Shown piece by piece: positions 37,085 to 50,037 of a stretch of DNA of 64,000 bases; within the stretch, counting starts at the first letter, position 1; every line of letters begins with the position of its first letter. This DNA is from Vasconcelosia minhoensis LEGE 07310 (GTDB taxonomy: Bacteria > Cyanobacteriota > Cyanobacteriia > Phormidesmidales > Phormidesmidaceae). Below the pieces are notes generated by a model. It had not been told where the DNA came from and did no database searches. It saw nothing but the letters and a program-made list of their open reading frames with translations. Position numbers and translations under genes: made by a program. The stretch covers positions 26,913 through 90,912 of the forward strand of contig NZ_JADEXG010000015.1 in assembly GCF_015207255.1 (NCBI RefSeq). Reading direction: 5' to 3'.

Positions 37085-38650
37085 TTAGAACAGCGGCTCT
37101 GGCCGATAGCGAGAGTAGTGAGCCGGGAGCTGTAGCCCCTGGAGCTGGAGATGCTGGAGCCGATAGCGGTAGGCCGCCCCGGTGATCAGGTGATGGGCTA
37201 TCTCTGCAACTCGCCGGGCGGTGGGGTCGGCTAGGTAGGTGTCTTTCACCCAGTGGTTAAACGCGCCCATGGCGGGGCCGCACCAGATCTGGTAGTCCAT
37301 CTCGCGACGGGGCTCGCCGAGAATCGACCAGCGTGATGACAGCCCCAGATACCAACGAAAAATCAGCGCCATTTTGCGCTTGGGATGGTCCTGAGCCCGG
37401 GCAATCTGCTCCGGGTCGCGCTGGTTGAAATAGGCGACAGTTTCCTGCCAGATGGTCTCCAGCGGCTGGCCAAACACCTGCTGCTCCAGCTTTTCGCGCT
37501 CAATAGGCTCAATCTCATCGATGCTGTCGTAGCGCTGGTAGAGTTCGTAGAGCTTCTGCGATCGCATCGGAAACAGCGTCCCCCGCTTCAGCAGCTGCAC
37601 CTTCACCCCCATCTCAAACATGTCGGCGGAGGGCGCCATGGTGACATCGGCCATCTGCGCCTTGGCGAGCAGCTCTTTAGTGTGGGCAGAGGTGCCCGCT
37701 TCCACGCAGGCCTGGTTAACCGAGCCGGTGACCACGTAGCTCGCCCCCATCGCAAAGGCGGCCAGGGCCGCATCAGGGGTGCCAATCCCGCCCGCCGCGC
37801 CGACTCTCACCGGGGTGGGGTAGCGATACTGCTGCTGAATCTGGTCTCTCAGGGCCAACACGGCGGGAAACAGGCAGACCAGGGCGCGATTGTCGGTATG
37901 GCCGCCGGAGTCGGCTTCAATCGTGATGTCGTCCGCCATCGGCATTTGGGCGGCCAGCGCTGCCTGCTGCGCGGTAATCGCCCCCTGCTCAACCAAAGGG
38001 GTTAGGAACTTAGCGGGGGCGGGCTGTAAGAACTGCTGGGCCACCTCCAGCCGCGAGAGTTTAGCAATGACCTTGTGCCGACTCTGGAGCTGGCCGGCGG
38101 CGTTTAGGGATAGCCCCGCGACTCGATAGCGAACTAAATCCGGCGTCAGAGAGAGAAAGGCCGAGGCTTCGATCGTCGTGACGCCGTGCTTTAGATAAAG
38201 ATCGACCGCGCCGCGCTCCAGGGCCGGTTCGCTGGGGCTGTGAATCAGGTTAAAGGCATAGGGGCCATCAGGGAGAGCCTGTTGGATTTGCGCGATCGCA
38301 TCCTCTATCCTCCCCGGCACCAGCCCCGCCGCCCCAAAGCTGGATAAGATCCCGGCTTTCCCCAGGGCAATCACCATGTCTTCAGAAGAAATGCCGTTGG
38401 CCATCGCCCCCGCCATGTAGGCGTAGCGCACCCCGTGGGCAGCCCGAAAGGCGGCGTCGCCCAGCTGCTCTGGCGGCAGGGCCAGGGCAAAGCAAAGCGG
38501 CGTCTCACCGCTGGCGAGCTGATGGGTAAAGCCGATCTGACTGCCCGCTTGCAGCACGTAGCAGGGCGCGGCCAGATGGCGAAGTTTTGTTTGGATACCA
38601 TCTGGATCAACCGCGATTACGGACGATTCGGGCGGAGAGAGAATGGGCAT
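37085..38650 (-). CDS. PfaD-family trans-acting enoyl reductase
   Basis: FMN-dependent enoyl reductase of the PfaD / 2-nitropropane dioxygenase-like family, acting in trans on ACP-bound enoyl chains in PUFA and hgl-type synthases. Visible are the barrel motifs GILSSFGAAGLVPGRIE, FNLIHSPSEPALE, EADSGGHTDN, VGAAGGIGTPDAALAAFAMG and QKLYELYQRYDS. About 521 residues, normal for the family. ATG at 38650 (MPILSPPESS) is chosen since it lies 8 bases after the preceding stop with GGAGG upstream; the frame is open to 38722 inside the upstream gene. The C-terminal region IWCGPAMGAFNHWVKD is characteristic of PfaD. Confidence 0.92.
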   Translation of the reverse strand: MPILSPPESSVIAVDPDGIQTKLRHLAAPCYVLQAGSQIGFTHQLASGETPLCFALALPPEQLGDAAFRAAHGVRYAYMAGAMANGISSEDMVIALGKAGILSSFGAAGLVPGRIEDAIAQIQQALPDGPYAFNLIHSPSEPALERGAVDLYLKHGVTTIEASAFLSLTPDLVRYRVAGLSLNAAGQLQSRHKVIAKLSRLEVAQQFLQPAPAKFLTPLVEQGAITAQQAALAAQMPMADDITIEADSGGHTDNRALVCLFPAVLALRDQIQQQYRYPTPVRVGAAGGIGTPDAALAAFAMGASYVVTGSVNQACVEAGTSAHTKELLAKAQMADVTMAPSADMFEMGVKVQLLKRGTLFPMRSQKLYELYQRYDSIDEIEPIEREKLEQQVFGQPLETIWQETVAYFNQRDPEQIARAQDHPKRKMALIFRWYLGLSSRWSILGEPRREMDYQIWCGPAMGAFNHWVKDTYLADPTARRVAEIAHHLITGAAYRYRLQHLQLQGLQLPAHYSRYRPEPLF

Positions 38651-38658
38651 GGTCTGAA

Positions 38659-41600
38659 CTAAGCCTCCTGAATGCAGAGTGCAATAGCCTGGATGGCGTA
38701 AATGCGCATGGTTTCTTTCCACAGGCTGGCATCGCCAATTATCGTGATGCGTTCGGCCTCTCGACGAATCTCGGAAATGTGGACTTCCAAATACAGCTTT
38801 TGGTTGTCAGGGGTGATCTGGCCGCGATACTTCCAGATGATGGGATGGTTGAGCGCTTGGGCAAATCGGGGTGAGGTAAAGCCCTGGTCGAGCCCCTGGT
38901 GAAGGGCGTAGAGCTGCATGGCTTGCAGAATGGTTTCGACGCCCAGTGCCCCTGGCATCACCGGATCCTGATAGAAGTGGAAAGGAAAATACCAGCTGCT
39001 GGGAGAGATTGTTTTCTCTGCGTAAACATAGCCCTGCTGATGCTGTCCACCAGCGGCAACCACCGCGGCTCGGTCGAGCAGGTCAAAATAGCCGCTGGCC
39101 AGCCGAGCGTGGGGCCGATTGACCTGGGGCTGATAGAATCGCTTGCGAACGGTTTGATTGCGCAGGTTTAAAGACTTTCCTGCCGGTGCTGACTCTAACC
39201 AGGTGGGCTTTAGCTTGCCGCCGTCCAGCCCCGACTGATGGGCCAGCACCTGGTCGCTAAAGTAGCCGAAGACCATCGTGCCGCGATAGAAGGGCTCGCC
39301 TTCGCAGGACAGCTGATAGGAAAACGATTGTAGAATTGTCCCCGCCAGCACGTTTACCGAAGTTAGCTCGACCTCATCGGTGATGGTTTTACCCCGCAGG
39401 TCAATCTCTTTGAGTACGGTGGCCTGGCCGTCAATGTTGCGGAAGTAGAGATCTTCTGACAGCGACTGAAGCGGCGTGCCCAGGTAGAGGCCGAGAAAGA
39501 TGCAGGGCTGTCCGGCAATCTCAATGTGGGCGCAGTAGGGCAGGTGGGGATAGCTGTTCTCTCGGTAAAACCAAGCATCGACGGGCACATCGTACTCGGT
39601 GACAATTTTTGCCCCCGGTACCAGCCGCCGTTCCGTAGGCACCTGTAACACCCGGCTGACCAGCTGAAAGTCTCGGTTAGGAATGCGGGCGCAGCGGCGC
39701 TGGTCAAAGACGGCAAAATCGGGACCTAAACAGTCGGCGACCCGGCCCATCGCCAGAGTTCGTAGGGACTCATCGTCAAACGCTAGTTCTTTGGTAGGGG
39801 CTTCGGCGGCGGCGGTTCCATCCAGCTGTAGCCCCAGATGGTCGATGGTGGCAATGATTTTTTCGCTCCAGATGACCTGGATATTCGCGATCGCGTAGGG
39901 CCTCGGCTCCAGCCCAATCTCAGTCACGTCCAGCTGATAGCGCAGCGTCCCTGTCGCCGGGGTCACCTGGCCGCGAAACTGAAAGGCCATTTTGCAGCCC
40001 GGCAGTGGCTGGAATCGAGCCTTCTGGACTCGCCTATGCAGACCCAGCCAGAGCAGATAGACTTGCAGCAGCTGAGAGCCGCCCTCGACCATCAGGCTGC
40101 CCGGCATCGTCGGGTCGTTTTTGAAATGGCATTGGAAATACCAGTCTTCGGGCGTGACGGTTTTGCTTCCCAGAATCTGGCCTAACCCAGCGCCGCCGCC
40201 GGTGGGCTCAATCTGCGTCACCTGGTCCACCATCATCAGCGCCGGGGGCGGCAGTCGCAGAGAGGGATTATCCGCCTGATAGTCAGGCCCCAAAACGCTC
40301 AGGTTACCCCGGCTCAGCTGCACCAGATCGGGCGTGTCCAGCTGGGTTTTAGGACTGGAAAGCAGCGGTATAAACGGCTTTTTGTCGGATATTGTGACCG
40401 GCTTCGCGACAATTCCCTGCCCCTTGGCCAGCTCCTCATCTGAGAACAGTCCGGCACAGCCCCCGGACAGCTGCATCCAGAGCCTATCGCCCGCCCAGCA
40501 TTCGCCTTCAAAAAAGACCAGCAGGCTCCGAGTGGTCTGTACATGAGCCGTAATCTTCACCCGATAGCGCAGCGTTTTCAGCGCTTTGGGCTGCACCGCC
40601 TTAAACTCACTGTTCAAATCCAACAGCCGAAAAGAGCGCTGACCGCGGCTCTCAAAATCGCTGCCCAGGTAGCTCAGCAGCAGCAGCAAACCATGCCCCG
40701 CCTCGGCGCAGATGCCGATCGGAATCTGACCATCGACGCTGTACCAGGCATCTGGGGGAATGTCGTACTCGGTCTCAATCACGCCGGTTGTGTAATCGCC
40801 GCGATCGCCCGAGAGCGCCGTCACCCGACTGACAAAGTGAAAGGGCGGACTGGGCAGCCGCACTCGCCGCAGATAGCCATCCACACGCTCATAGTCTGGC
40901 CCAAACAGCCGCGAAACCCTATCCTGCGTCAGTTCCAGCACCTCCGCCGCATTCAGAATCTCTGTTTTAACAGACGGTTCGGATTTCTCAGTCGGCGTAA
41001 TCCCCGAACGCAGCCCCACCCGCTGAGGTAGGCTGGGTCGCGACCCAGCAGCAGCCCCATACAGCGGCGACAGATCTAGCGAAACCCGATGACTCACCAG
41101 CTGCGCCAGGGCCTTCACGATCGCGGTATAGTCATCCGTCCCCCGTCGATTGATTCCCATCACCGCATGGTCCCGCTGTGCCAGGTTCTGACTAATCCAG
41201 CGGGCGCAGGTGCCGCCCGCCCCCAGCTCGATAAAGACCCGCGCCCCGTCGGCGTAGACCTGGTTTACCAGCTGCGGAAAGTCGAGCGGCTGACAGATGC
41301 CCGTGGCCAGCTGGTGGGCAACGGCGTCCTGATCGAGCGGCAGGGGCTGATAGGTGGCAGAAGTATAAAACCGGATGGGCGACGGGTTGAGCGGCTGCAA
41401 ATGGTTCAGGGCAAACAGCTCGGGATAGGCCGAGGCCATCGCTTCGCAGTGCAGCACCAGATTGGCCGGTGAGCGAAACGACTCGCACTGGAGGGCGGCG
41501 ATAACGCGATCGCACCCTTCAGCATCGCCCCCAATCACCACTTCCTGGGGCGTATTGATGTGGGTGAGATAGACTCGCGGCTCCTGCGCTAGGCAGGCTC

Positions 41601-43602
41601 GCACCTGCTCCGGGGAAGTCAGCAGCACATAGCTACTCCAGCGCAGCTTGCCAGTATCCGGCCAATGCGCCTGAATCACCTCCTGGGCACCGCCCAGCTG
41701 TGACTGGAACAGGCGCGACTGATGAACAAACTCGCTGCCGTAGTCAGCGTTTGACCAGACGTCGAGGGCATACATCATGGTGCTCTCGCCCATGCTGTAG
41801 CCAAATGCGGCCTGGGGCTGCACCTGAAAAATCTTTTGAATAATTTCGGTGAACAATACCGAGAACCCTGTCCCGGTTTCTAGCAGCGCCAGTGGCAGCT
41901 CCCCGAGCTGTGCTTCTCGGGCCTCTAGCTCACGCTTCGAGAGTTTGTGCTGGCTCTTGGGATAGAGCTGCTGAACCTGGAAGAAAGCCAGCGGGTTCGA
42001 AATCAGTCGATCTACCCGCTCAAATAGCTGAGGAAAGCGATGGAACAGGGTGCGGCCCATGTCCAGGTAGGTGTTAAAGGCACCGGGGTAGACGAAGGCG
42101 ACGCTGCCCTGCTGGCCCTGGGGCCGGGCGGTGAAGTAGCTTCCGGCTGGACTCTTCCAGTCCTTGCCTTGGCTAAAGGCCCGCTGAATACCGATACGCG
42201 CCCGCTCAATTTCCTTCAGCAGCTTCTCTTTTTGCGCGCCGACCAGGGCCAGGGCGTAGGGGACTTCAGGGGAAGCGGCCAGACTGGTTTCTCTGGCTAA
42301 AGCACCGAGGCTGTCGGTTTCGCTCAGGCGCTGTTCTAGCTGGTCGAGCTGGGATAGGAGCGTAGGCTGGTCGGCAGCCGCGATCGCAAACAAACAGACG
42401 GGCCTCGTCTGATCGCCCGGCTGCTGCGGATGGTGGGCCTCTGCCAGTAGCAGATGCCCGTGGCGACTGTTGACCGCCGCCCGCCGCTGGAGCTGCGGCC
42501 CCGCTGAAAGCCAAGGCCGGGCCTCGGTTGGCACATAGAACGGACTGGCCTGCCAGAGCGCGGGATGACGGGGAGCCTGCCAATTCGGCACCGGCGGCAG
42601 GTAGCGATGGTACAGGCACAGAGCGGCGTGAATCATTCCCAGCAGGTCTGCAACAGCACCGGTTTCGCCGAGATTCGCCTTGATACTGCCGACCGCACAG
42701 CACAGCTCAGAACCGGGATCGCCCCGATAGACCTGGGTGAGTCCCTTCAGCTCGATTTCGTCAATGCTGGCATTGCCGCTGGCCACCAGCTCCAGGTAGC
42801 CGACGGCGGCAGGCGCGACCCCAACCTGCTGAAGCCCCTGTCGAACCCGAGCGGCAACGGCCTCGGCGGTGACGAATGCCGGCTGACAGTGGGAGGTCGC
42901 CTCGATCACGGCGTAAATCCGGTCGCCCGCCTGAATCGCTTTCTCGTAAGACTTCAGAACAATTGCCGCTGCGCCCTCGCCGGGATAGTTCTCCTGGGCC
43001 TGGGCCTCATAGCTGAAGGCGGTTTTACCGACAGCGGGGGGAATCAGGCTGGCCTGATGGGAGACCGCGATCGCGACCGCGTCAACTTCTCCCGCCGTCA
43101 GCATCAGCTGGGCTCGGTCGATGGCACTGAGGACAAAGTCGGCGTTGGGCTCCAGGGTCAGGGTTGTGGTTTGGCAGCGCCAGAGCTGAGCGAGCTTGGT
43201 CGCAGTCGGGGAAGCGGTCTGCGGCTGGGTTTGGACCGCGATCGTGCCGCCTCGGCGGCGATGGCCCACTCGGGCTTTATCAATCGTTTCGGCGGCGGCG
43301 CTGTTTGCACCTGCGGGTTGAATCACGCCCAGTCGCGTCAGGCCGTCCTTCCCCTGGCCAACGGCTCGATGCAGCACCGTCAGCAGCAGCAGCTCCGCTG
43401 GCGTAAACCGGCTGAAATCCTTCGGCGGAATTTTGAGCTCAAAGGCATCGACTTCAAGGCTGCTGAGATAGGTGCCCGGCACCCCTGCGGCAGGCTGAGT
43501 AAAGTGCGGTTTACCCTCATAGCTGCTGTTGACTATCGCGTCGAGCCCGATACAGCTGCCCGCGATCGCGTCCATTCCCACTATGGCCAGTTTAATACTC
43601 AC
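38659..43602 (-). CDS. PUFA/hgl-type synthase subunit: CLF-AT-DH-DH
   Basis: 1647 residues. The first 380 have a ketosynthase fold but no catalytic residues: the Cys position is in PNADFVLSAID, and the two His motifs read LVASGNASIDE and KANLGETGAVAD, so it is a chain-length-factor-like domain. An AT follows (about 480-860) with AAFGYSMGESTMMYALDVW, as in PfaB. Two double-hotdog FabA-like dehydratases make up the rest; the active-site strands are CHFKNDPTMPGSLMVEG and FHFYQDPVMPGALGVE, each with a preceding hotdog (PPDAWYSVDG, PVDAWFYREN). Canonical PfaC has KS-CLF-DH-DH with PfaB separate, so this is a rearranged CLF-AT fusion that must use the KS of the 46-50 kb protein. Confidence 0.88.
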   Translation of the reverse strand: MSIKLAIVGMDAIAGSCIGLDAIVNSSYEGKPHFTQPAAGVPGTYLSSLEVDAFELKIPPKDFSRFTPAELLLLTVLHRAVGQGKDGLTRLGVIQPAGANSAAAETIDKARVGHRRRGGTIAVQTQPQTASPTATKLAQLWRCQTTTLTLEPNADFVLSAIDRAQLMLTAGEVDAVAIAVSHQASLIPPAVGKTAFSYEAQAQENYPGEGAAAIVLKSYEKAIQAGDRIYAVIEATSHCQPAFVTAEAVAARVRQGLQQVGVAPAAVGYLELVASGNASIDEIELKGLTQVYRGDPGSELCCAVGSIKANLGETGAVADLLGMIHAALCLYHRYLPPVPNWQAPRHPALWQASPFYVPTEARPWLSAGPQLQRRAAVNSRHGHLLLAEAHHPQQPGDQTRPVCLFAIAAADQPTLLSQLDQLEQRLSETDSLGALARETSLAASPEVPYALALVGAQKEKLLKEIERARIGIQRAFSQGKDWKSPAGSYFTARPQGQQGSVAFVYPGAFNTYLDMGRTLFHRFPQLFERVDRLISNPLAFFQVQQLYPKSQHKLSKRELEAREAQLGELPLALLETGTGFSVLFTEIIQKIFQVQPQAAFGYSMGESTMMYALDVWSNADYGSEFVHQSRLFQSQLGGAQEVIQAHWPDTGKLRWSSYVLLTSPEQVRACLAQEPRVYLTHINTPQEVVIGGDAEGCDRVIAALQCESFRSPANLVLHCEAMASAYPELFALNHLQPLNPSPIRFYTSATYQPLPLDQDAVAHQLATGICQPLDFPQLVNQVYADGARVFIELGAGGTCARWISQNLAQRDHAVMGINRRGTDDYTAIVKALAQLVSHRVSLDLSPLYGAAAGSRPSLPQRVGLRSGITPTEKSEPSVKTEILNAAEVLELTQDRVSRLFGPDYERVDGYLRRVRLPSPPFHFVSRVTALSGDRGDYTTGVIETEYDIPPDAWYSVDGQIPIGICAEAGHGLLLLLSYLGSDFESRGQRSFRLLDLNSEFKAVQPKALKTLRYRVKITAHVQTTRSLLVFFEGECWAGDRLWMQLSGGCAGLFSDEELAKGQGIVAKPVTISDKKPFIPLLSSPKTQLDTPDLVQLSRGNLSVLGPDYQADNPSLRLPPPALMMVDQVTQIEPTGGGAGLGQILGSKTVTPEDWYFQCHFKNDPTMPGSLMVEGGSQLLQVYLLWLGLHRRVQKARFQPLPGCKMAFQFRGQVTPATGTLRYQLDVTEIGLEPRPYAIANIQVIWSEKIIATIDHLGLQLDGTAAAEAPTKELAFDDESLRTLAMGRVADCLGPDFAVFDQRRCARIPNRDFQLVSRVLQVPTERRLVPGAKIVTEYDVPVDAWFYRENSYPHLPYCAHIEIAGQPCIFLGLYLGTPLQSLSEDLYFRNIDGQATVLKEIDLRGKTITDEVELTSVNVLAGTILQSFSYQLSCEGEPFYRGTMVFGYFSDQVLAHQSGLDGGKLKPTWLESAPAGKSLNLRNQTVRKRFYQPQVNRPHARLASGYFDLLDRAAVVAAGGQHQQGYVYAEKTISPSSWYFPFHFYQDPVMPGALGVETILQAMQLYALHQGLDQGFTSPRFAQALNHPIIWKYRGQITPDNQKLYLEVHISEIRREAERITIIGDASLWKETMRIYAIQAIALCIQEA

Positions 43603-43640: not shown

Positions 43641-45407
43641 TTAGCTAGCGAGCGCAACCGCTCTCTCTGAATCTGTCTCTGGTACACTTTCGGAACAGAC
43701 ATTTTCCAAAAAGAGAGACTTCAGCCGGGCACTCTTCACCACCTGCATTGCCTCGACCTGCATACATAGCGTCCCATCGGCCCGATGGGCGGTCCCATGG
43801 GCGGTAACCGTACTTTCGTCCTCAGCCAAAATTTCTAGGGAAATCGTAAAGGTCTGGTCAAATGACAGCGGCTGGAGCTGCTGCATATGACCAAACTGAG
43901 AAGGCAGGCTGCCGAGATCCCGCTGTTTTCTCACCCAGGCCAGCAGGCACTGGTAGAAGGCGTCCGCTGTGTAGGGGTTGAACGTGCGCACGGGGAACTG
44001 TCCCTGCTGCAGGCGGCTGAGCGTGGGCAGGTGACACTGAACGACGAGAGATTTTTCGCTAATTTCCAGCAGAGTTCTCAGGCTCTGGAAGCCCGGCTGG
44101 TGGAAGAGGGTACCGTCTTGGTACAGGGCGGTGGGCGGAGCTGGGGGGTGCGATCGCGCGCCTGTCTCCAGCGCTGACGGAGTTCGTGTCAGCATTAGCT
44201 CGGTTCGATAGTGATACCGCTGTAATCCTCTGGTCCCTTCGCTCCAGACGCCAGCTTCCAGGGTGACGGTGGTTTCGTCGGCCTGTCTTTCCGTCAGCTC
44301 TAATGTGTAGGCCGGAGCCAGAGTGCGGTCGAACACAATCCCCTTCAGCACCTTGAAGTCTCGTGCCCCAGTAAACCGATAGCCGGGATAAAGCTGTTCT
44401 CCCCCGTTGGCAATCCAGCTCAGCCCGCACATGGCAGGCAGCACCGGCTGGCTGCCGATGACATGTTCGCGGACAAAAGGATTCGTGGCTAGGGTGAGCT
44501 GGCGGCGAACCCGATGCCGATGCCCCTGGCCGTACGGGCCGCCAGCGGGAAGCTCGATCGGGCGGCTCATCACGGTGAGCTGAGTGGCGGCGGGACTGCT
44601 CTCGGCCAGCTCAGCCGCCAGCAGCTGAGCGCCATAGGCGGGGGGAATCAGCGCCATCTCCAGCTGGGCAAAGTGCCGCTTCAGCTCAGCCGTGACCATG
44701 CCACCATCCCAGGGACCCCAGCCCACGGCGACGACGTGACAGCTGGGATAGCGCCGCTGCAAACGGTGGGCTGTCTTGTTCAAAATCTCGTTAGCCAGGG
44801 CATAGTCGGCCTGTCCGGCATTGCCGTAGAAGCCAACAAAGGAAGAGAACAGCACTAGGAAGTCGAGCTGGCTAGGGTCTACGCAGCTGAGTAGGTTATT
44901 GAGACCGGTAACTTTGGTGTTGTAGACTCGCTCAAAGTCTGAGTCGGTCTTGTGCTCAATCCGCTTGTCAGCTAGGGCACCCGCGCCGTGAATCAGTCCG
45001 GTGATGGGGCCCGCGATCGCGCCCGTGACTGCCTGCTGTAAGGCTGCCTCGTCGGTAATATCAGCGCTCATATATTCGGCCTGACCTCCCACCTGCTGAA
45101 TCGCCGACAGCGTTGCGATAATCTCTCGCTGCCCGACAATCTGTCGATAGCGCTGCTCCACCGCAGCTGGCTTGGGCTTCTCACCCTGGGCCAGCAGCGC
45201 CTGCATAATCTGTCGCTTCAGCTCGGCTTCCTCGCAACAGCCCTCGGCCCAGGCAGGCTCCGGTTCTGCCATTGCGGACCGGCCCAGCAGCACAAACCGA
45301 CAGCGATACTGCCGCGCCAGCTCAATCACGCACTGGGCGGTCACTCCCCGCGCGCCGCCGCTAACTAGAATGACAGAATTAGAGTGAATCTTTGTCGATG
45401 TAGTCAT
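43641..45407 (-). CDS. Ketoreductase catalytic half plus hotdog dehydratase (PfaA C-terminal part)
   Basis: 588 residues. Residues 10-290 are a KR catalytic domain: VILVSGGARGVTAQCVIELA (NADPH loop), RFVLLGRS, LIHGAGALADK, LFSSFVGFYG (Ser), ADYALANEILN (Tyr, Asn) and GWGPWDGGMV. Residues 300-575 resemble the hotdog dehydratase at the end of PfaA: FVREHVIGSQPVLPAMCGL with the active His. The structural half of the KR is on the preceding gene, so this protein alone is not a whole KR. Starts with MTTSTKIHSNS 42 bases after the previous stop; two in-frame stops separate them. Confidence 0.85.
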   Translation of the reverse strand: MTTSTKIHSNSVILVSGGARGVTAQCVIELARQYRCRFVLLGRSAMAEPEPAWAEGCCEEAELKRQIMQALLAQGEKPKPAAVEQRYRQIVGQREIIATLSAIQQVGGQAEYMSADITDEAALQQAVTGAIAGPITGLIHGAGALADKRIEHKTDSDFERVYNTKVTGLNNLLSCVDPSQLDFLVLFSSFVGFYGNAGQADYALANEILNKTAHRLQRRYPSCHVVAVGWGPWDGGMVTAELKRHFAQLEMALIPPAYGAQLLAAELAESSPAATQLTVMSRPIELPAGGPYGQGHRHRVRRQLTLATNPFVREHVIGSQPVLPAMCGLSWIANGGEQLYPGYRFTGARDFKVLKGIVFDRTLAPAYTLELTERQADETTVTLEAGVWSEGTRGLQRYHYRTELMLTRTPSALETGARSHPPAPPTALYQDGTLFHQPGFQSLRTLLEISEKSLVVQCHLPTLSRLQQGQFPVRTFNPYTADAFYQCLLAWVRKQRDLGSLPSQFGHMQQLQPLSFDQTFTISLEILAEDESTVTAHGTAHRADGTLCMQVEAMQVVKSARLKSLFLENVCSESVPETDSERAVALAS

Positions 45408-45449: not shown

Positions 45450-46191
45450 TCAGACAGCGTCAGCAGACGTCAGCGTTACCCGCCCCAAGCGCCCATAGCC
45501 AACTTCGCGAATGAACAGATTTGGGTCGTGGATTTCTGCAATTAGGGCGTTGGCCGCCTCGACCGCAGAAAGCTCGGGGCTAATGTCAATGGCGCGACAG
45601 AAGACGGTGGGCCATTCCAGCCGGAGGGTTTTGGTTAGTCCAAACAGGCCGCCGCTGGTTGCTGGGTAGGGTCGGTCTCCCAGTCCTAACTCCCCGTCCA
45701 GACGGGCTACGGTAATAAAGCTGCGGCGCTCTCGACGCTCGGCCTGAACCAAAAAGGGTTGGAGCTGTTTGGCCAAGAAAAAGACCGTTTTGATCAATCC
45801 TCTATCTGAAACCGGCTCCAGTGGGTGCAGGTGAATGAAGGTATGGATAGCTCCGTATGCCTGCGCGATCGCGCTCAGCTGCATCTGCATCTGTCCTTCT
45901 TCTACAGTTTTCAGGTGGACTGACCGAATTTCTGCCGAAACTGTCGATTTTCTCACCAGCGATGGCGGAAACTTGAGGATAACAACCGGCCAGCCCTGAT
46001 CGCTTAGCCGCTGCACCACCTGCGCCGTCAGGGGAGAACCCTCGTCAGTAACCAGGCAGGCTCCTCGATCGGGCAGCTGAAATTCTAGATAGTCAGGCGC
46101 AGAGAGCAGCATGGGCTTCACCAGGTAGCGCTTAAGTGCAAGATGGGATGAGAGCTGGGTTAACAGGCCAGGGCTGGCTGATTTTTTTTTT
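45450..46191 (-). CDS. Ketoreductase structural half-domain, continuing the KS-AT-ACP gene in another frame
   Basis: About 240 residues matching the non-catalytic N-terminal half of PfaA/HglE-type ketoreductases: APDYLEFQLPDRG, CLVTDEGSPLTAQVVQRL, WPVVILKFPPS, GLIKTVFFLAKQL, RRSFITVARLDGELGL, GGLFGLTKTLRLEWP. In a normal synthase this follows the ACP without a break. Here the frame joins the upstream gene only by losing one A from the A10 tract at 46191-46182. A separate start is poor: the first in-frame ATG (46112) has no ribosome site and leaves little linker. The upstream gene ends 60 bases inside this one. Best read as the second half of a slippage-controlled fusion. Confidence 0.7.
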
Positions 46192-49100
46192 AAGCTGCTC
46201 CACCAGATAGTCCGCAATCTGTTGCAGCGTCCGCAGCTCACCCAGCGCTTCTGTATTCAGTCGGGGCAGGTCAGTCAGGACATCCTGAACTTTGCCCATA
46301 ATCTCGACTCGCTTAATCGAGTCGATGCCCAGGTCGGCCTCTAAATCCATATCTAGCTCCAGCATTTCTGCTGGATAGCCGGTTTTTTCACTGACGGCAG
46401 TTAGCAGAGTTGAGATCGCCTCATCTCGCATCGCAGTCGATTCTTCCACGGCCGATGAATTCGGCGGTTCTACCGGTGCAGGTGGGACTGGTGAAGGAGC
46501 AATCGGCGGCGCTATGGACTCTACCGGCGGCGCAGCAAGGTGTGCGACTGGCACAGGCGGCGCTGTTGGCACAGAAGGAGGAGAGAACTGAATGGGTTCA
46601 ATCGGTTCGGCAGTTCTGACCATGGGCGGCTCAGCTACTGACGCTTTAGGCGCTGGTATCTCAGGCGCTGATATTTCAGGAGCAGTGATTGAACTGGGCG
46701 CAGCCTCTAGCTGCTCAGCCCGTGGCGTAACTGATGCTGGACGGGCCGCCGCGGGCAGGCTACCACCCTGAAGCTGCTGCACAATCTGCAAAAACGCTTG
46801 AGAACAGCCGGTCTGATCCCTCAGGTATTGTTCATGGACCCGTAGAATTTCAGTCTGATGGCGACAAAACTGAGTCAGCAGGTTTTCTAGGGTGTTTTTA
46901 GGCAGGTTATCGGGTGCGGATTGGGGGGTGGAGTTTGGCATGGTTTCAGAGTCGAAAGGACAGATATCGAGAGATTGAGGGATGGGTTCGGGCAGAGAAA
47001 TGGGCGTAGTTTGAACAGATAGAGATTCAGCGTCCGAGTTTTCTACCCTGCTGGCAGGAGCAGCCTCAGCGATCGCGGCAGCAGCGGGCTGACTGGCAGA
47101 CGGACTGGCGGGTGGCTCAGCCAACCTCACCTGATGTCCGTCCAGCAGCGCCTCGGCGAACGCCTGCTTGGTTTTATCGCTGACGTAGTTATTGCCGTCC
47201 AGGCCAATCTGCAAGCGCGACTTGGCCGTTGATTTGGGCAGCGGCGGGTCGAGCTGATAGAAGTCAATATTCCTGAGCGGCAGTCCCGCCACCTGGAGCT
47301 GCACAACCGCCTGCCGCAGCTGCAGGTCGCTGTCTTTTTGGCGGCTGGGGTTGAGCGCGATCGCAAAATGGGGCCGATTGCCCAGAATGCTCTCCACTAA
47401 GCCAGTCAAAATCCGCCGGGGGCCAATCTCAATAAAGCAGTCGCCGCCCGCGGCATAGATATTCTCGATCTCTTGCTGGAAGTGGACGGGCTTAAGCAGA
47501 TGGGCCTTCAGCAGGGTTCTAATCGCCTCGGGCTCAGCGGGATACAGCTCTCCCGTGGTGTTGGCGTAGACCGGGATGGTCGGAGGGTGAAACGCGATCG
47601 CGTCCAGGGCTTCAGCAAAGGGTTCGCTGGCGTGGCGGATAAAGGGGGAGTGGAACGCCGCTGATACCGGCAGCGGCGTGACCTCATAGCCGCGATTGCT
47701 AAAGATCTGTTGAACCGCGGCGAGCTCGGGCCGGCTGCCGGAGAGGACGACCTGATTGGGTCCGTTGTAGTTGGCAATGCTGACGTGGGACAGGTTTTGA
47801 ATGATTTGTTCTATCTCGCTCACCTCTCCCTGCACCGACAGCATGGTCCCTAGCTCACTGGGATGGGCAGATTGCGGCGGGCAGTCCATCGCTTCACCGC
47901 GCGCTTTGATTAGCGTCAGGTAGTCCTCATCGCTCAGCACCTGGGCGGCCCAGAGCGCCGTGATTTCGCCAAAGCTATGCCCGGCGGTAAAGCTCGGCTC
48001 TAACCCGGCCTGCTGGAGGATTTTGTAAAGCCCAAAGCTAAAGGCGCCTATCGCGGGCTGGGCGTTGCGGGTGGACTTCAGCGATTCGGTCTCGGCCACT
48101 TCCAGACTGCTCTCAAAAGCCGGGCGCGGAAATACGACTTGAGAAAGCGGCGGCTGCCCCTCCTGTACAAACAGATCGTCCATCTGCTTGTAGGCCTGAT
48201 GCACGGGCGGAAAGTCAATCGCCAGCTTGCGCCCCATATTTAGGTACTGCGACCCCTGCCCGGGGAACAGCGCGACGACTCTACCGCTCAGCGTCATGCC
48301 CTGCCGGCGGTAGTACAGCCCGCGCGGATGCTCCCAGCTGTCTGGCTGATTCTCATTAGCCAGCAGCTTAACGCTGATTTCCAACAGTGTTTTAAGTTCG
48401 TCTTGTGAGTTCACCACCATGCCGAGTCGTGCTGCATCCAGTGGAACCTCGGCTGCTTTGTAGGCAATCACTAAATTTCGGTAGGTACTCTCAGCCGTTG
48501 GCGACTTCAGCTCGGCTAGAACGGTCTGACATTGTTCAGCCAGCGCCTCGGGGGTTTGGTCCCACAGCAAAACGGCCTGCGGTACAGAATGTAAGCGGTA
48601 GGCGCATCTGTGCTCCTGGTCATACTCTTCTAAAACCACGTGATAGTTAGTGCCGCCAAATCCAAAGGAGCTGACGCCCGCCCGCCGCAGCGCTGTCCCT
48701 TCCTGAATCCAGGGCTTGACCTCTGTGTTCAGATAGAACGGTGAGTCCGCCATTTCAAATTTAGGATTGGGCTGAGAGATGTTGATCGTTGGCGGCAGAA
48801 TCTTGTGATGCAGCGCCAGCGCCGTCTTAATCAGGCTGGCTGCGCCCGCAGCGGCTTTGGTATGGCCAATTTGAGACTTGACGCTGCCCAGGGCGATATA
48901 TTCTTTTTTAGGATTGTCTTCGCCAAAGACCGACTTGAGCGCCCCAAACTCACATTCGTCGCCACGCGGGGTGCCCGTGCCGTGGGCTTCCATCAGGCCG
49001 ACCGAGGCGGGGGAAAAACCCGCATCCTCGTAGGCCCGCTTCAGCGCTAGCATCTGCCCTTCTGGCCGGGGCGCATAGATGCTCTTATAGCGGCCATCGC

Positions 49101-50037
49101 TGGAGGTGCCCACGCCTTTGACCACGGCATAGATGCGATCGCCATCCCGCTCTGCATCGTCCAGCCGCTTCAGCACCATCATGCCGATTCCTTCCCCCAC
49201 CATCATGCCGTCCGAATCCGCGTCGAAGGGGCTGAGGTAGTCTTTTTTGGAAAAGGCCGGGGTTTTGCTAAAGCACATATAGTTGAGGACAGAGTTGTCC
49301 GTATCTACCCCGCCCGTAATCATCAGGTCGCAGCGACGCTCGATTAGCTCACCCACCGCCATCTTGAAGGCGCTCAGCGAGCTGGCGCAGGCGGCATCGA
49401 CGGTGCAGTTGGTGCCGCCCAGGTCAAAGCGATTGGTGATGCGCCCGGCGACTACGTTGGTTAACATGCCGGGAAAGGAGTTCTCCTGCCAGGGCACGTA
49501 GGCCAGCCTAAGCTTTTCGATAATTTTTTCGCGATCGCGCTCGCACAGTCCGCTGCTTTTAAGCACTTTCTCCCAAATCGGATACTGAAGCCGACTGGTC
49601 AGCGGCGTGATCATCTTCCACAGGCCGCTGGCCCCCAGGACGACGCCGGTGGTTTCCCGTTTAAAGTCTCGAGACTTGCCGTAGCCCGCGTCCTCCAACG
49701 CATCTCGGGCGACGATTAGCGACAGCAGCTGGGCCGAATCGATCGCTTCCAGGCTGTCTGGCGGCAGCCCAAATTCCAGCGGGTCAAAGTCAATTTTGGG
49801 CAGAAAGCCGCCACGCCGGGAGTAGGTTTTATCCGGCGCTTTGGGATCGGCATCGTAGTAGTCCGCGACGTTCCAGCAAGATTCCGGAACATCGGTAATG
49901 CAGTCTTCTTTATTGATGATATTGCACCAGTATTCCTGAAGATCGCGCGCTTTAGGAAACAGAGCGGACATTCCAATAATTGCAATCGGAATGCGCTGGA
50001 GCTGGCAGTACCACTGGGTGCGCCCTTGATCTGTCAT
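46132..50037 (-). CDS. PUFA/hgl-type synthase subunit: KS-AT-ACP (PfaA/HglE-like)
   Basis: 1301 residues. KS (about 12-470) of the PUFA/hgl clade: VDAACASSLSAFKMA, EAHGTGTPRGDE, KSQIGHTKAAAG. AT (about 600-920): FTAGHSFGEITALW with Ser, and SAAFHSPFI. A long Pro/Ala/Glu/Ser-rich linker leads to one ACP, EADLGIDSIKRVEIMGKV; PUFA synthases usually have several tandem ACPs, so chain throughput may be lower. The zero frame ends 22 residues past the ACP (EQLKKK, then ISQPWPVN to TAA), directly after an A10 run. ATG at 50037 follows a long promoter region and is the first gene of the minus-strand cluster. Confidence 0.92.
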   Translation of the reverse strand: MTDQGRTQWYCQLQRIPIAIIGMSALFPKARDLQEYWCNIINKEDCITDVPESCWNVADYYDADPKAPDKTYSRRGGFLPKIDFDPLEFGLPPDSLEAIDSAQLLSLIVARDALEDAGYGKSRDFKRETTGVVLGASGLWKMITPLTSRLQYPIWEKVLKSSGLCERDREKIIEKLRLAYVPWQENSFPGMLTNVVAGRITNRFDLGGTNCTVDAACASSLSAFKMAVGELIERRCDLMITGGVDTDNSVLNYMCFSKTPAFSKKDYLSPFDADSDGMMVGEGIGMMVLKRLDDAERDGDRIYAVVKGVGTSSDGRYKSIYAPRPEGQMLALKRAYEDAGFSPASVGLMEAHGTGTPRGDECEFGALKSVFGEDNPKKEYIALGSVKSQIGHTKAAAGAASLIKTALALHHKILPPTINISQPNPKFEMADSPFYLNTEVKPWIQEGTALRRAGVSSFGFGGTNYHVVLEEYDQEHRCAYRLHSVPQAVLLWDQTPEALAEQCQTVLAELKSPTAESTYRNLVIAYKAAEVPLDAARLGMVVNSQDELKTLLEISVKLLANENQPDSWEHPRGLYYRRQGMTLSGRVVALFPGQGSQYLNMGRKLAIDFPPVHQAYKQMDDLFVQEGQPPLSQVVFPRPAFESSLEVAETESLKSTRNAQPAIGAFSFGLYKILQQAGLEPSFTAGHSFGEITALWAAQVLSDEDYLTLIKARGEAMDCPPQSAHPSELGTMLSVQGEVSEIEQIIQNLSHVSIANYNGPNQVVLSGSRPELAAVQQIFSNRGYEVTPLPVSAAFHSPFIRHASEPFAEALDAIAFHPPTIPVYANTTGELYPAEPEAIRTLLKAHLLKPVHFQQEIENIYAAGGDCFIEIGPRRILTGLVESILGNRPHFAIALNPSRQKDSDLQLRQAVVQLQVAGLPLRNIDFYQLDPPLPKSTAKSRLQIGLDGNNYVSDKTKQAFAEALLDGHQVRLAEPPASPSASQPAAAAIAEAAPASRVENSDAESLSVQTTPISLPEPIPQSLDICPFDSETMPNSTPQSAPDNLPKNTLENLLTQFCRHQTEILRVHEQYLRDQTGCSQAFLQIVQQLQGGSLPAAARPASVTPRAEQLEAAPSSITAPEISAPEIPAPKASVAEPPMVRTAEPIEPIQFSPPSVPTAPPVPVAHLAAPPVESIAPPIAPSPVPPAPVEPPNSSAVEESTAMRDEAISTLLTAVSEKTGYPAEMLELDMDLEADLGIDSIKRVEIMGKVQDVLTDLPRLNTEALGELRTLQQIADYLVEQLKKKISQPWPVNPALIPSCT
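46182..46191 (-). promoter_or_regulatory. A10 slippery tract, predicted slippage/frameshift site
   Basis: Ten consecutive A on the coding strand (T10 on the plus strand) within CTT-AAA-AAA-AAA-ATC. In the zero frame the synthase stops 16 codons on. Removal of one A joins the ACP in frame to the KR structural half-domain. Runs of nine or more A are known sites of transcriptional slippage by bacterial RNA polymerase. A sequencing error in the homopolymer would give the same picture. Confidence 0.6.

What the first reader, a model, noticed from the sequence alone, without database searches (positions are those of the whole stretch)
45450..50037. A10 tract may switch a PUFA-type synthase between short and KR-fused forms
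The KS-AT-ACP gene stops 16 codons after CTT-AAA-AAA-AAA-ATC; losing one A joins it exactly to the KR structural half-domain, which otherwise lacks a good start and ribosome site. Sense on both sides is intact, so the sequence could use transcriptional slippage to make two products: a truncated KS-AT-ACP and a synthase with KR half. I know of no described hgl/PUFA gene controlled so. A homopolymer sequencing error is the main alternative.
Basis: partly seen in the sequence, partly recalled or inferred. Interest (0 to 1): 0.75.

Follow-up and report, generated by a model that had tools for sequence, protein, structure and literature searches.

The report
A10 slip site in lipid synthase
At one domain border of a lipid-making megaenzyme gene, 56 of 96 cyanobacterial gene copies examined carry a run of exactly ten A bases, and this run likely makes RNA polymerase slip so that one gene would yield both a short and a longer enzyme.

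Summary
The A10 tract is real (46182-46191, minus strand) and is the only A/T run of ten or more in the 5.26-Mb assembly.

At 96 homologous ACP-to-KR borders from 63 cyanobacterial genomes, 56 have exactly A10, 5 A9, 6 A8, 2 A7 and 27 no run. Runs of 8-10 occur in 10 of 11 coded families, also at 64-66% G+C. The frames are joined at 80 borders and shifted at 16; all 16 shifted ones keep A8-A10, and frame state changed at least seven times on the tree. Given the peptide, codon usage does not explain the run.

Corrections: the KR half does have a start and ribosome site here (ATG 46112), so separate translation is a live rival or companion. A close relative's tail implies one base more than the window, so the exact length here is unsure. 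No RNA or protein data: slippage itself is untested.

The parts
46132..50037 (-). KS-AT-ACP ORF (PfaA-like), 1301 aa, stop TAA at 46132-46134
   Evidence: ORF; Pfam KS, AT, PP-binding; TIGR02813 positions 3-965, 1434.6 bits
46182..46191 (-). A10 tract (T10 on the plus strand), candidate slip site just after the ACP
   Evidence: only A/T run of 10 or more in the assembly; A8-A10 at 67 of 96 homologous borders
46118..46122 (-). GGTGA, possible ribosome site five bases before ATG 46112
   Evidence: sequence; function not tested
45450..46112 (-). KR structural half (KRs) from its own ATG, 220 aa
   Evidence: TIGR02813 positions 1756-1978; P0232, 220 aa, starts at the same residue
45450..46181 (-). 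KRs frame from the end of the A-run to its stop; no stop codon between run and KRs core
43641..45407 (-). KR catalytic half plus dehydratase-like domain, 588 aa, separate ORF
   Evidence: Pfam KR, PS-DH; TIGR02813 positions 1990-2582
38659..43602 (-). PfaC-like ORF, context only
   Evidence: Pfam Ketoacyl-synt_C, FabA, Acyl_transf_1; PfaB-family and FabA-type models
37085..38722 (-). PfaD-like ORF, context only
   Evidence: TIGR02814, 686.6 bits

Best explanation
The A10 tract is a recurrent site at the ACP-to-KR border of cyanobacterial PfaA/HglE-type synthase genes, and RNA polymerase is predicted to slip on it so that one gene would make both a KS-AT-ACP protein and a longer KS-AT-ACP-KR-half protein. 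Shown: the run, its recurrence and length at the same border, the joined or shifted frames, and the open KR-half frame behind it. Inferred: transcripts with A9, A10 and A11 would coexist; where the DNA frame is joined, slipped transcripts would give the short enzyme, and where it is shifted, as in the window, slipped transcripts (A9 here) would give the long one. Because the KR catalytic half is a separate ORF here, the slip ratio would set what share of synthase subunits carries the half-domain needed to assemble a ketoreductase. In the window's lineage the KR half may also be made on its own from ATG 46112.
For: A10 at 56, A9 at 5 and A8 at 6 of 96 borders, 63 genomes, 10 of 11 coded families, A10 also at 64-65% G+C (L083, L085, L087). 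In four genomes the only A10 is this one (own; G150, G232, G279). None of 9 or more in 182.7 kb of other coding sequence of 66 loci. 32 clusters with a run: 10.8 expected to keep it given their peptides and codon usage, product 10^-18.7; in 17 the run is closed by AAG, product 10^-8.6. 1 of the 14 clusters without a run of 8 has Lys-Lys in the linker. Frame state changed at least 7 times while all 16 shifted loci keep A8-A10. 420 codons between run and KR core in the 16 shifted loci hold no stop; that stretch fits the joined-locus profile in 9 of 9 anchored shifted loci. 3 of 16 shifted loci have no ATG, GTG or TTG there (L044, L055, L088). The criterion of PMC1088944, a length-conserved A/T run among homologues, is met (section read).
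Against: No reads, RNA or peptides. 27 of 96 borders have a joined frame and no run of 7 or more. The window has its own ATG and GGTGA for the KR half, and its stretch upstream of that ATG is the least conserved of the nine (25 of 5000 shuffles as good). Four shifted loci (L083, L085, L086, L087) have a TTG overlapping the stop right after the run, so coupled translation is possible. Stops in slipped frames of joined loci are not individually closer than elsewhere in the gene for most (fractions 0.001-0.71, mean 0.23). 70 of the 96 borders come from one family. The codon test is conditional on having a run. P0126 implies that the window strain may not have exactly A10 in this frame. Persicobacter shows the same split with no run.
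Confidence: 0.7

Rival explanations
1. Separate genes: KS-AT-ACP and the KR half are two proteins, the KR half being started at its own ATG by coupled translation, and the A-run is a by-product of a lysine-rich linker.
For: ATG 46112 with GGTGA; P0232-P0240 start at the matching residue; TTG-stop overlap in four loci; Persicobacter split without a run. The length filter (about 145-460 aa) cannot show fused forms, so it only proves that such predicted proteins exist.
Against: 3 of 16 shifted loci lack any usual start codon there; the stretch upstream of the start is conserved in the KR frame; codon choice keeps the run; 51 of 67 runs of 8-10 lie in joined frames, where no second start is needed.
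Confidence: 0.13
2. Ribosomal frameshifting: ribosomes, not polymerase, slip on the A-run.
For: In 14 of 16 shifted loci a ribosomal -1 shift would join the frames; A-rich heptamers lie in the run; some loci have a GGAGG-like stretch just upstream.
Against: The window and L060 need the opposite direction; no consistent downstream structure (mean z -0.10 in 32 representatives); ten A are kept where seven would do; the GGAGG-like stretch is missing in many.
Confidence: 0.1
3. Phase variation: replication slippage changes the run length between cells, switching the long form on and off.
For: Frame state differs between relatives; L057 (A9, joined) and L060 (A10, shifted) share the 15 bases after the run.
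Against: Length is held at ten in 56 of 67 runs of 8-10; joined A10 in 45 of one 46-row clade; runs are closed by AAG. Population reads were not available.
Confidence: 0.04
4. Sequencing error or recent decay in this genome.
For: Draft of 161 contigs; homopolymers are error-prone; P0126 implies one base more.
Against: P0126 and P0127 also stop right after the ACP; all domains are intact; 15 other shifted borders occur in other genomes.
Confidence: 0.03

Closest known systems
Thermus thermophilus dnaX, A9 transcriptional slippage (PMC1088944, PMC5009743, passages seen)
   Same: A-run in a joined frame; slipped mRNAs give a shorter protein
   Different: Slippage there is demonstrated; here it is inferred, in a lipid megasynthase, with ten A and with the DNA frame joined in some lineages and shifted in others
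IS-element transposases with A8-A10 runs, including Nostoc sp. PCC 7120 (PMC1088944, Discussion read)
   Same: A-run between two overlapping ORFs, slippage would fuse them
   Different: Chromosomal lipid synthase, not a mobile element; run also kept in joined genes
PfaA polyunsaturated fatty acid synthase (TIGR02813)
   Same: Domain order KS-AT-ACP-KR-DH across three ORFs
   Different: The window gene is cut into KS-AT-ACP, KR half and KR-DH, with A10 at the first cut
HglE-type heterocyst glycolipid synthases and hgl-like islands (PMC11804610, passages seen)
   Same: Cyanobacterial PfaA-like synthases; the paper mentions gene fusions and fissions of islands
   Different: The text held does not contain the words frameshift or slippage; the names HglE/Hgl for my unnamed loci are inferred, and the window has PKS and NRPS neighbours

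Membership tests
Programmed transcriptional slippage | A/T run of about nine or more in a coding region | tested here: met
   A10; 61 of 96 homologous borders A9-A10
Programmed transcriptional slippage | Run length conserved among homologues (criterion of PMC1088944) | tested here: met
   56 of 96 exactly A10; 27 of 96 without a run, mostly longer joined genes; codon test
Programmed transcriptional slippage | Shifted extension behind the run conserved | tested here: met
   no stop in 420 codons; profile fit in 9 of 9 anchored, 7 of the 16 could not be anchored
Programmed transcriptional slippage | Heterogeneous mRNAs and two products | not testable with these tools
   no RNA or peptide data
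Programmed -1 ribosomal frameshifting | -1 shift gives access to the downstream frame | tested here: not met
   not in the window or L060; direction fits in 14 other shifted loci
Programmed -1 ribosomal frameshifting | Stimulatory structure downstream | tested here: not met
   window z 0.50; mean -0.10 over 32 representatives
PfaA (TIGR02813) | Model score above cut-off and domain order | tested here: met
   KS-AT-ACP ORF 1434.6 bits, cut-off 1010.1; the other two ORFs match later parts below the cut-off
HglE heterocyst glycolipid synthase | Makes heterocyst glycolipid aglycone; hgl island neighbours | not tested
   window neighbours are PfaC/PfaD-like, PKS and NRPS ORFs; island gene set not searched
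Phase-variable locus | Run length varies among cells of one strain | not testable with these tools
   no reads; length mostly ten among species

The most novel reading that the evidence does not exclude
An ancient, phylum-wide transcriptional slip switch in cyanobacterial hgl/PUFA-type synthases: selection holds a ten-A run at the ACP-KR border while the DNA frame itself drifts between joined and shifted, so the ratio of KR-bearing to KR-less megaenzyme is written in polymerase slippage rather than in the frame.
Probability: 0.6. Interest if true: 0.92.

Novelty: new variant of a known kind. Interest (0 to 1): 0.85.

Why it matters
The programmed slippage cases I know of in bacteria are dnaX, secretion genes and transposases. 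A length-held A10 inside a lipid megasynthase, found in 10 of the 11 cyanobacterial families that had the gene in my samples, would be a new use: one gene supplying synthase subunits with and without the KR half-domain. It would also mean that such genes annotated as split, fused or frameshifted may be the same gene read two ways, and it is directly testable in laboratory Nostoc or Anabaena strains.

Tried and rejected
Ordinary split gene: I first took the stand-alone KR-half proteins as showing that the A10 is incidental; the DNA of homologues changed that, though the split stays the main rival. Sequencing error: weakened by P0126 and P0127. Ribosomal frameshifting as sole cause: direction in the window and lack of structure. 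Crowded stops in slipped frames: not convincing. The genome-contig scan with the KR half gave two loci, Dolichospermum and Spirosoma. In the window's own order (63 genomes, its own included) four others had only weak hits, so no near relative's DNA was obtained. Plasmid collection: nine hits, none from a cyanobacterium; three of the nine looked at, none with a run of 6 or more in the 600 nt before the KR half. The motif-based border finder missed loci and was replaced by tblastn anchoring. The KR half alone matches solved structures only weakly, as SDR reductases. Papers on hglF/hglG: none listed.

Full report
What is there. The gene at 50037-46132 (minus strand) encodes KS-AT-ACP, 1301 aa, and matches the first part of the PfaA model (TIGR02813 positions 3-965, 1434.6 bits). 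The ORF ending at 45450 matches positions 1756-1978, the KR structural half (here KRs), and the ORF 43641-45407 positions 1990-2582, the KR catalytic half and dehydratase. One PfaA is thus laid out in three pieces. The second border (stop TGA at 45450, ATG at 45407) has a counterpart: P0071, P0073 and P0092 are KS-AT-ACPs-KRs proteins that end at the matching point. The first border is the finding: CTT AAA AAA AAA ATC, stop at the 16th codon after ATC, and a joined frame of 1528 aa if one A is lost. The A10 is the only run of 8 or more in the window and the only A/T run of 10 or more in the assembly; there are 16 other A9 runs.

Correction to the finding. KRs has a start: ATG at 46112, 19 nt after the TAA, with GGTGA five bases before it. 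The database holds a 220-aa protein, 99% identical, that starts exactly there (P0232), and P0233-P0240 (66-74% identical) start at the matching residue, while P0241 (63%) starts later. One search listed 120 of 132 hits; its length filter admits only about 145-460 aa, so it cannot show fused forms, and predicted proteins begin at a start codon by construction.

Close kin. P0126 (1292 aa, nearly identical) and P0127 (1284 aa, 69% over residues 860-1301) also stop just after the ACP, with tails LEKKNQPALAC and LEKKNQPVLSR. The P0126 tail is the third-frame reading of the window's bases after the run, so it must have one base more than the window between CTT and TCAG; G plus A10 is the simplest reading, but only protein was available. 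The interruption is therefore not unique to this assembly, while the exact run length in the window strain may be off by one.

Comparative test. KRs homologues were sought in 388 genomes of the class (43 with a match, 64 places) and, with another query and cut-off, in 386 of the phylum (45 with a match, overlapping; 32 new places). All 96 borders, from 63 genomes, were fetched and anchored by tblastn of ACP and KRs. Exactly A10 in 56, A9 in 5, A8 in 6, A7 in 2, no run of 7 or more in 27 (recounted). By coded family, 10 of 11 have at least one run of 8 or more; f27 (one locus) has none, and f32 supplies 70 of the 96. The run persists at high G+C: A10 in L083, L085 and L087 at 0.64-0.65, A8 in L080-L082 at 0.66. 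Genome-wide counts, in the own genome and 20 genomes that I chose: in the own genome, G150, G232 and G279 the only A10 is the one at this border; in G072, G074, G093, G139 and G193 it is one of two; G118 and G342 have one A10 elsewhere (their borders are A7 and A9), G256 and G291 have none (A9 and A8), and the other eight have four or more. In other coding sequence around the borders, 182.7 kb over 66 loci (64 plus Dolichospermum and Spirosoma), there is no A/T run of 9 or more, 7 of 8 and 18 of 7.

Against. 24 of the 27 lie in open frames of at least 2100 aa, that is, with the whole KR and dehydratase part joined on; of the 67 with a run of 8-10, six do (L030, L031, L034, L051, L127, L138; open frames). 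So the run goes mainly with the architecture in which the gene ends after KRs or is cut before it.

Joined and shifted frames. At 80 of 96 borders ACP and KRs share one DNA frame, at 16 they do not; all 16 have A8-A10. In 14 of them one more A (or a ribosomal -1 shift) joins the frames; in the window and L060 one A fewer does. On a tree of ACP plus KRs (98 rows, quick method, 34 of 95 inner branches weak) the frame state changed at least 7 times, also with the two comparison rows left out, and presence of the run at least 9 times; one 46-row clade has A10 in 45. L057 and L060 share the 15 bases after the run, one with A9 and joined, one with A10 and shifted.

Is it only lysine codons? Loci were collapsed to 46 clusters, 32 with a run of at least 8 and 14 without. 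With the peptide fixed and each locus's own codon usage, 10.8 of the 32 would be expected to keep the run (product 10^-18.7, taking the least telling locus of each cluster). The test is conditional on having a run; of the 14 clusters without, one (L043) has Lys-Lys in the linker. In 17 clusters the run is closed by an AAG codon (product of AAG usage 10^-8.6). Elsewhere in the genes 73 of 152 Lys-Lys pairs are AAAAAA.

Is the far side read through the run? In all 16 shifted loci the KRs frame has no stop between run and KRs core, 420 codons in all. The peptide there matches a profile of 33 joined loci in 9 of 9 anchored shifted loci: 0 or 1 of 5000 shuffles as good in eight, 25 of 5000 in the window; the other 7 and Spirosoma could not be anchored. 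In L044, L055 and L088 no ATG, GTG or TTG lies from the run to 15 codons into KRs. Against this, L083, L085, L086 and L087 have a TTG overlapping the stop right after the run, and the window has its ATG.

Mechanism. Polymerase slippage explains both directions of shift, the length of ten where seven would do for ribosomes, and the lack of consistent downstream structure (mean z -0.10 in 32 representatives, window 0.50). The criterion that a run conserved in length among homologues is very likely used for purposeful slippage is stated in the Discussion of PMC1088944 (section read), which also reports Nostoc sp. PCC 7120 IS elements with 8-10 A. In the window's own genome an A9 run in L013 lies where an HTH ORF and a DDE_3 ORF of a transposase overlap; L016 is similar but more broken, and L018 has a like context. 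Ribosomal -1 shifting may add to it in the 14 loci where the direction fits. What the two products do is inference: with the KR catalytic half in a separate protein, the slip ratio would fix how many subunits offer the partner half.

Limits. No reads, no peptides. Outside cyanobacteria four records were looked at: Spirosoma has A7 with overlapping frames, Persicobacter is split without a run, two actinobacterial records are joined without a run.

Literature. Searches for hglE with slippage, hglE with frameshift, transcriptional slippage with cyanobacteria (15 of 17 listed), with polyketide synthase and with Nostoc, PfaA with frameshift, heterocyst with frameshift, and homopolymer slippage with polyketide listed no title on such a site. 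PMC11804610 (passages) treats hgl island evolution and holds neither frameshift nor slippage in its main text; PMC3711429 and PMC5009743 (passages; the latter held only in part) do not name these genes in the passages searched. Supplements and most subscription papers were not searched, so novelty is only as good as that.

Noticed in passing
L013 and L016 (window genome contigs C43, C47); L018 (C71): A9 runs inside transposase-like genes: in L013 an HTH ORF and a DDE_3 ORF overlap at the run; L016 is similar but more broken; L018 has a like context and was not scanned. 3 of the 16 A9 runs of the genome.
   Followed up: partly
L057 and L060 (genomes G162 and G181): Related borders with identical 15 bases after the run; one A9 and joined, the other A10 and shifted: a natural toggle of the frame.
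   Followed up: partly
L083, L085, L086, L087: Right after the A10 a TTG overlaps the stop TGA of the ACP frame, so these four may couple translation as well as slip.
   Followed up: no
L169 (Persicobacter psychrovividus plasmid pPP1): ACP and KR half lie in different frames with no A-run of 6 or more; no feature annotated there in the collection's table.
   Followed up: partly
window 17753-43602: The Pfa-like ORFs are followed on the same strand by PKS ORFs, a KS-AT-ACP-condensation ORF, an AMP-binding plus condensation ORF and an MFS transporter: a hybrid lipid-PKS-NRPS cluster of unknown product.
   Followed up: partly
window 38659-38722: The PfaC-like and PfaD-like ORFs as listed overlap by 64 bases; a later start for the second is possible.
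   Followed up: no
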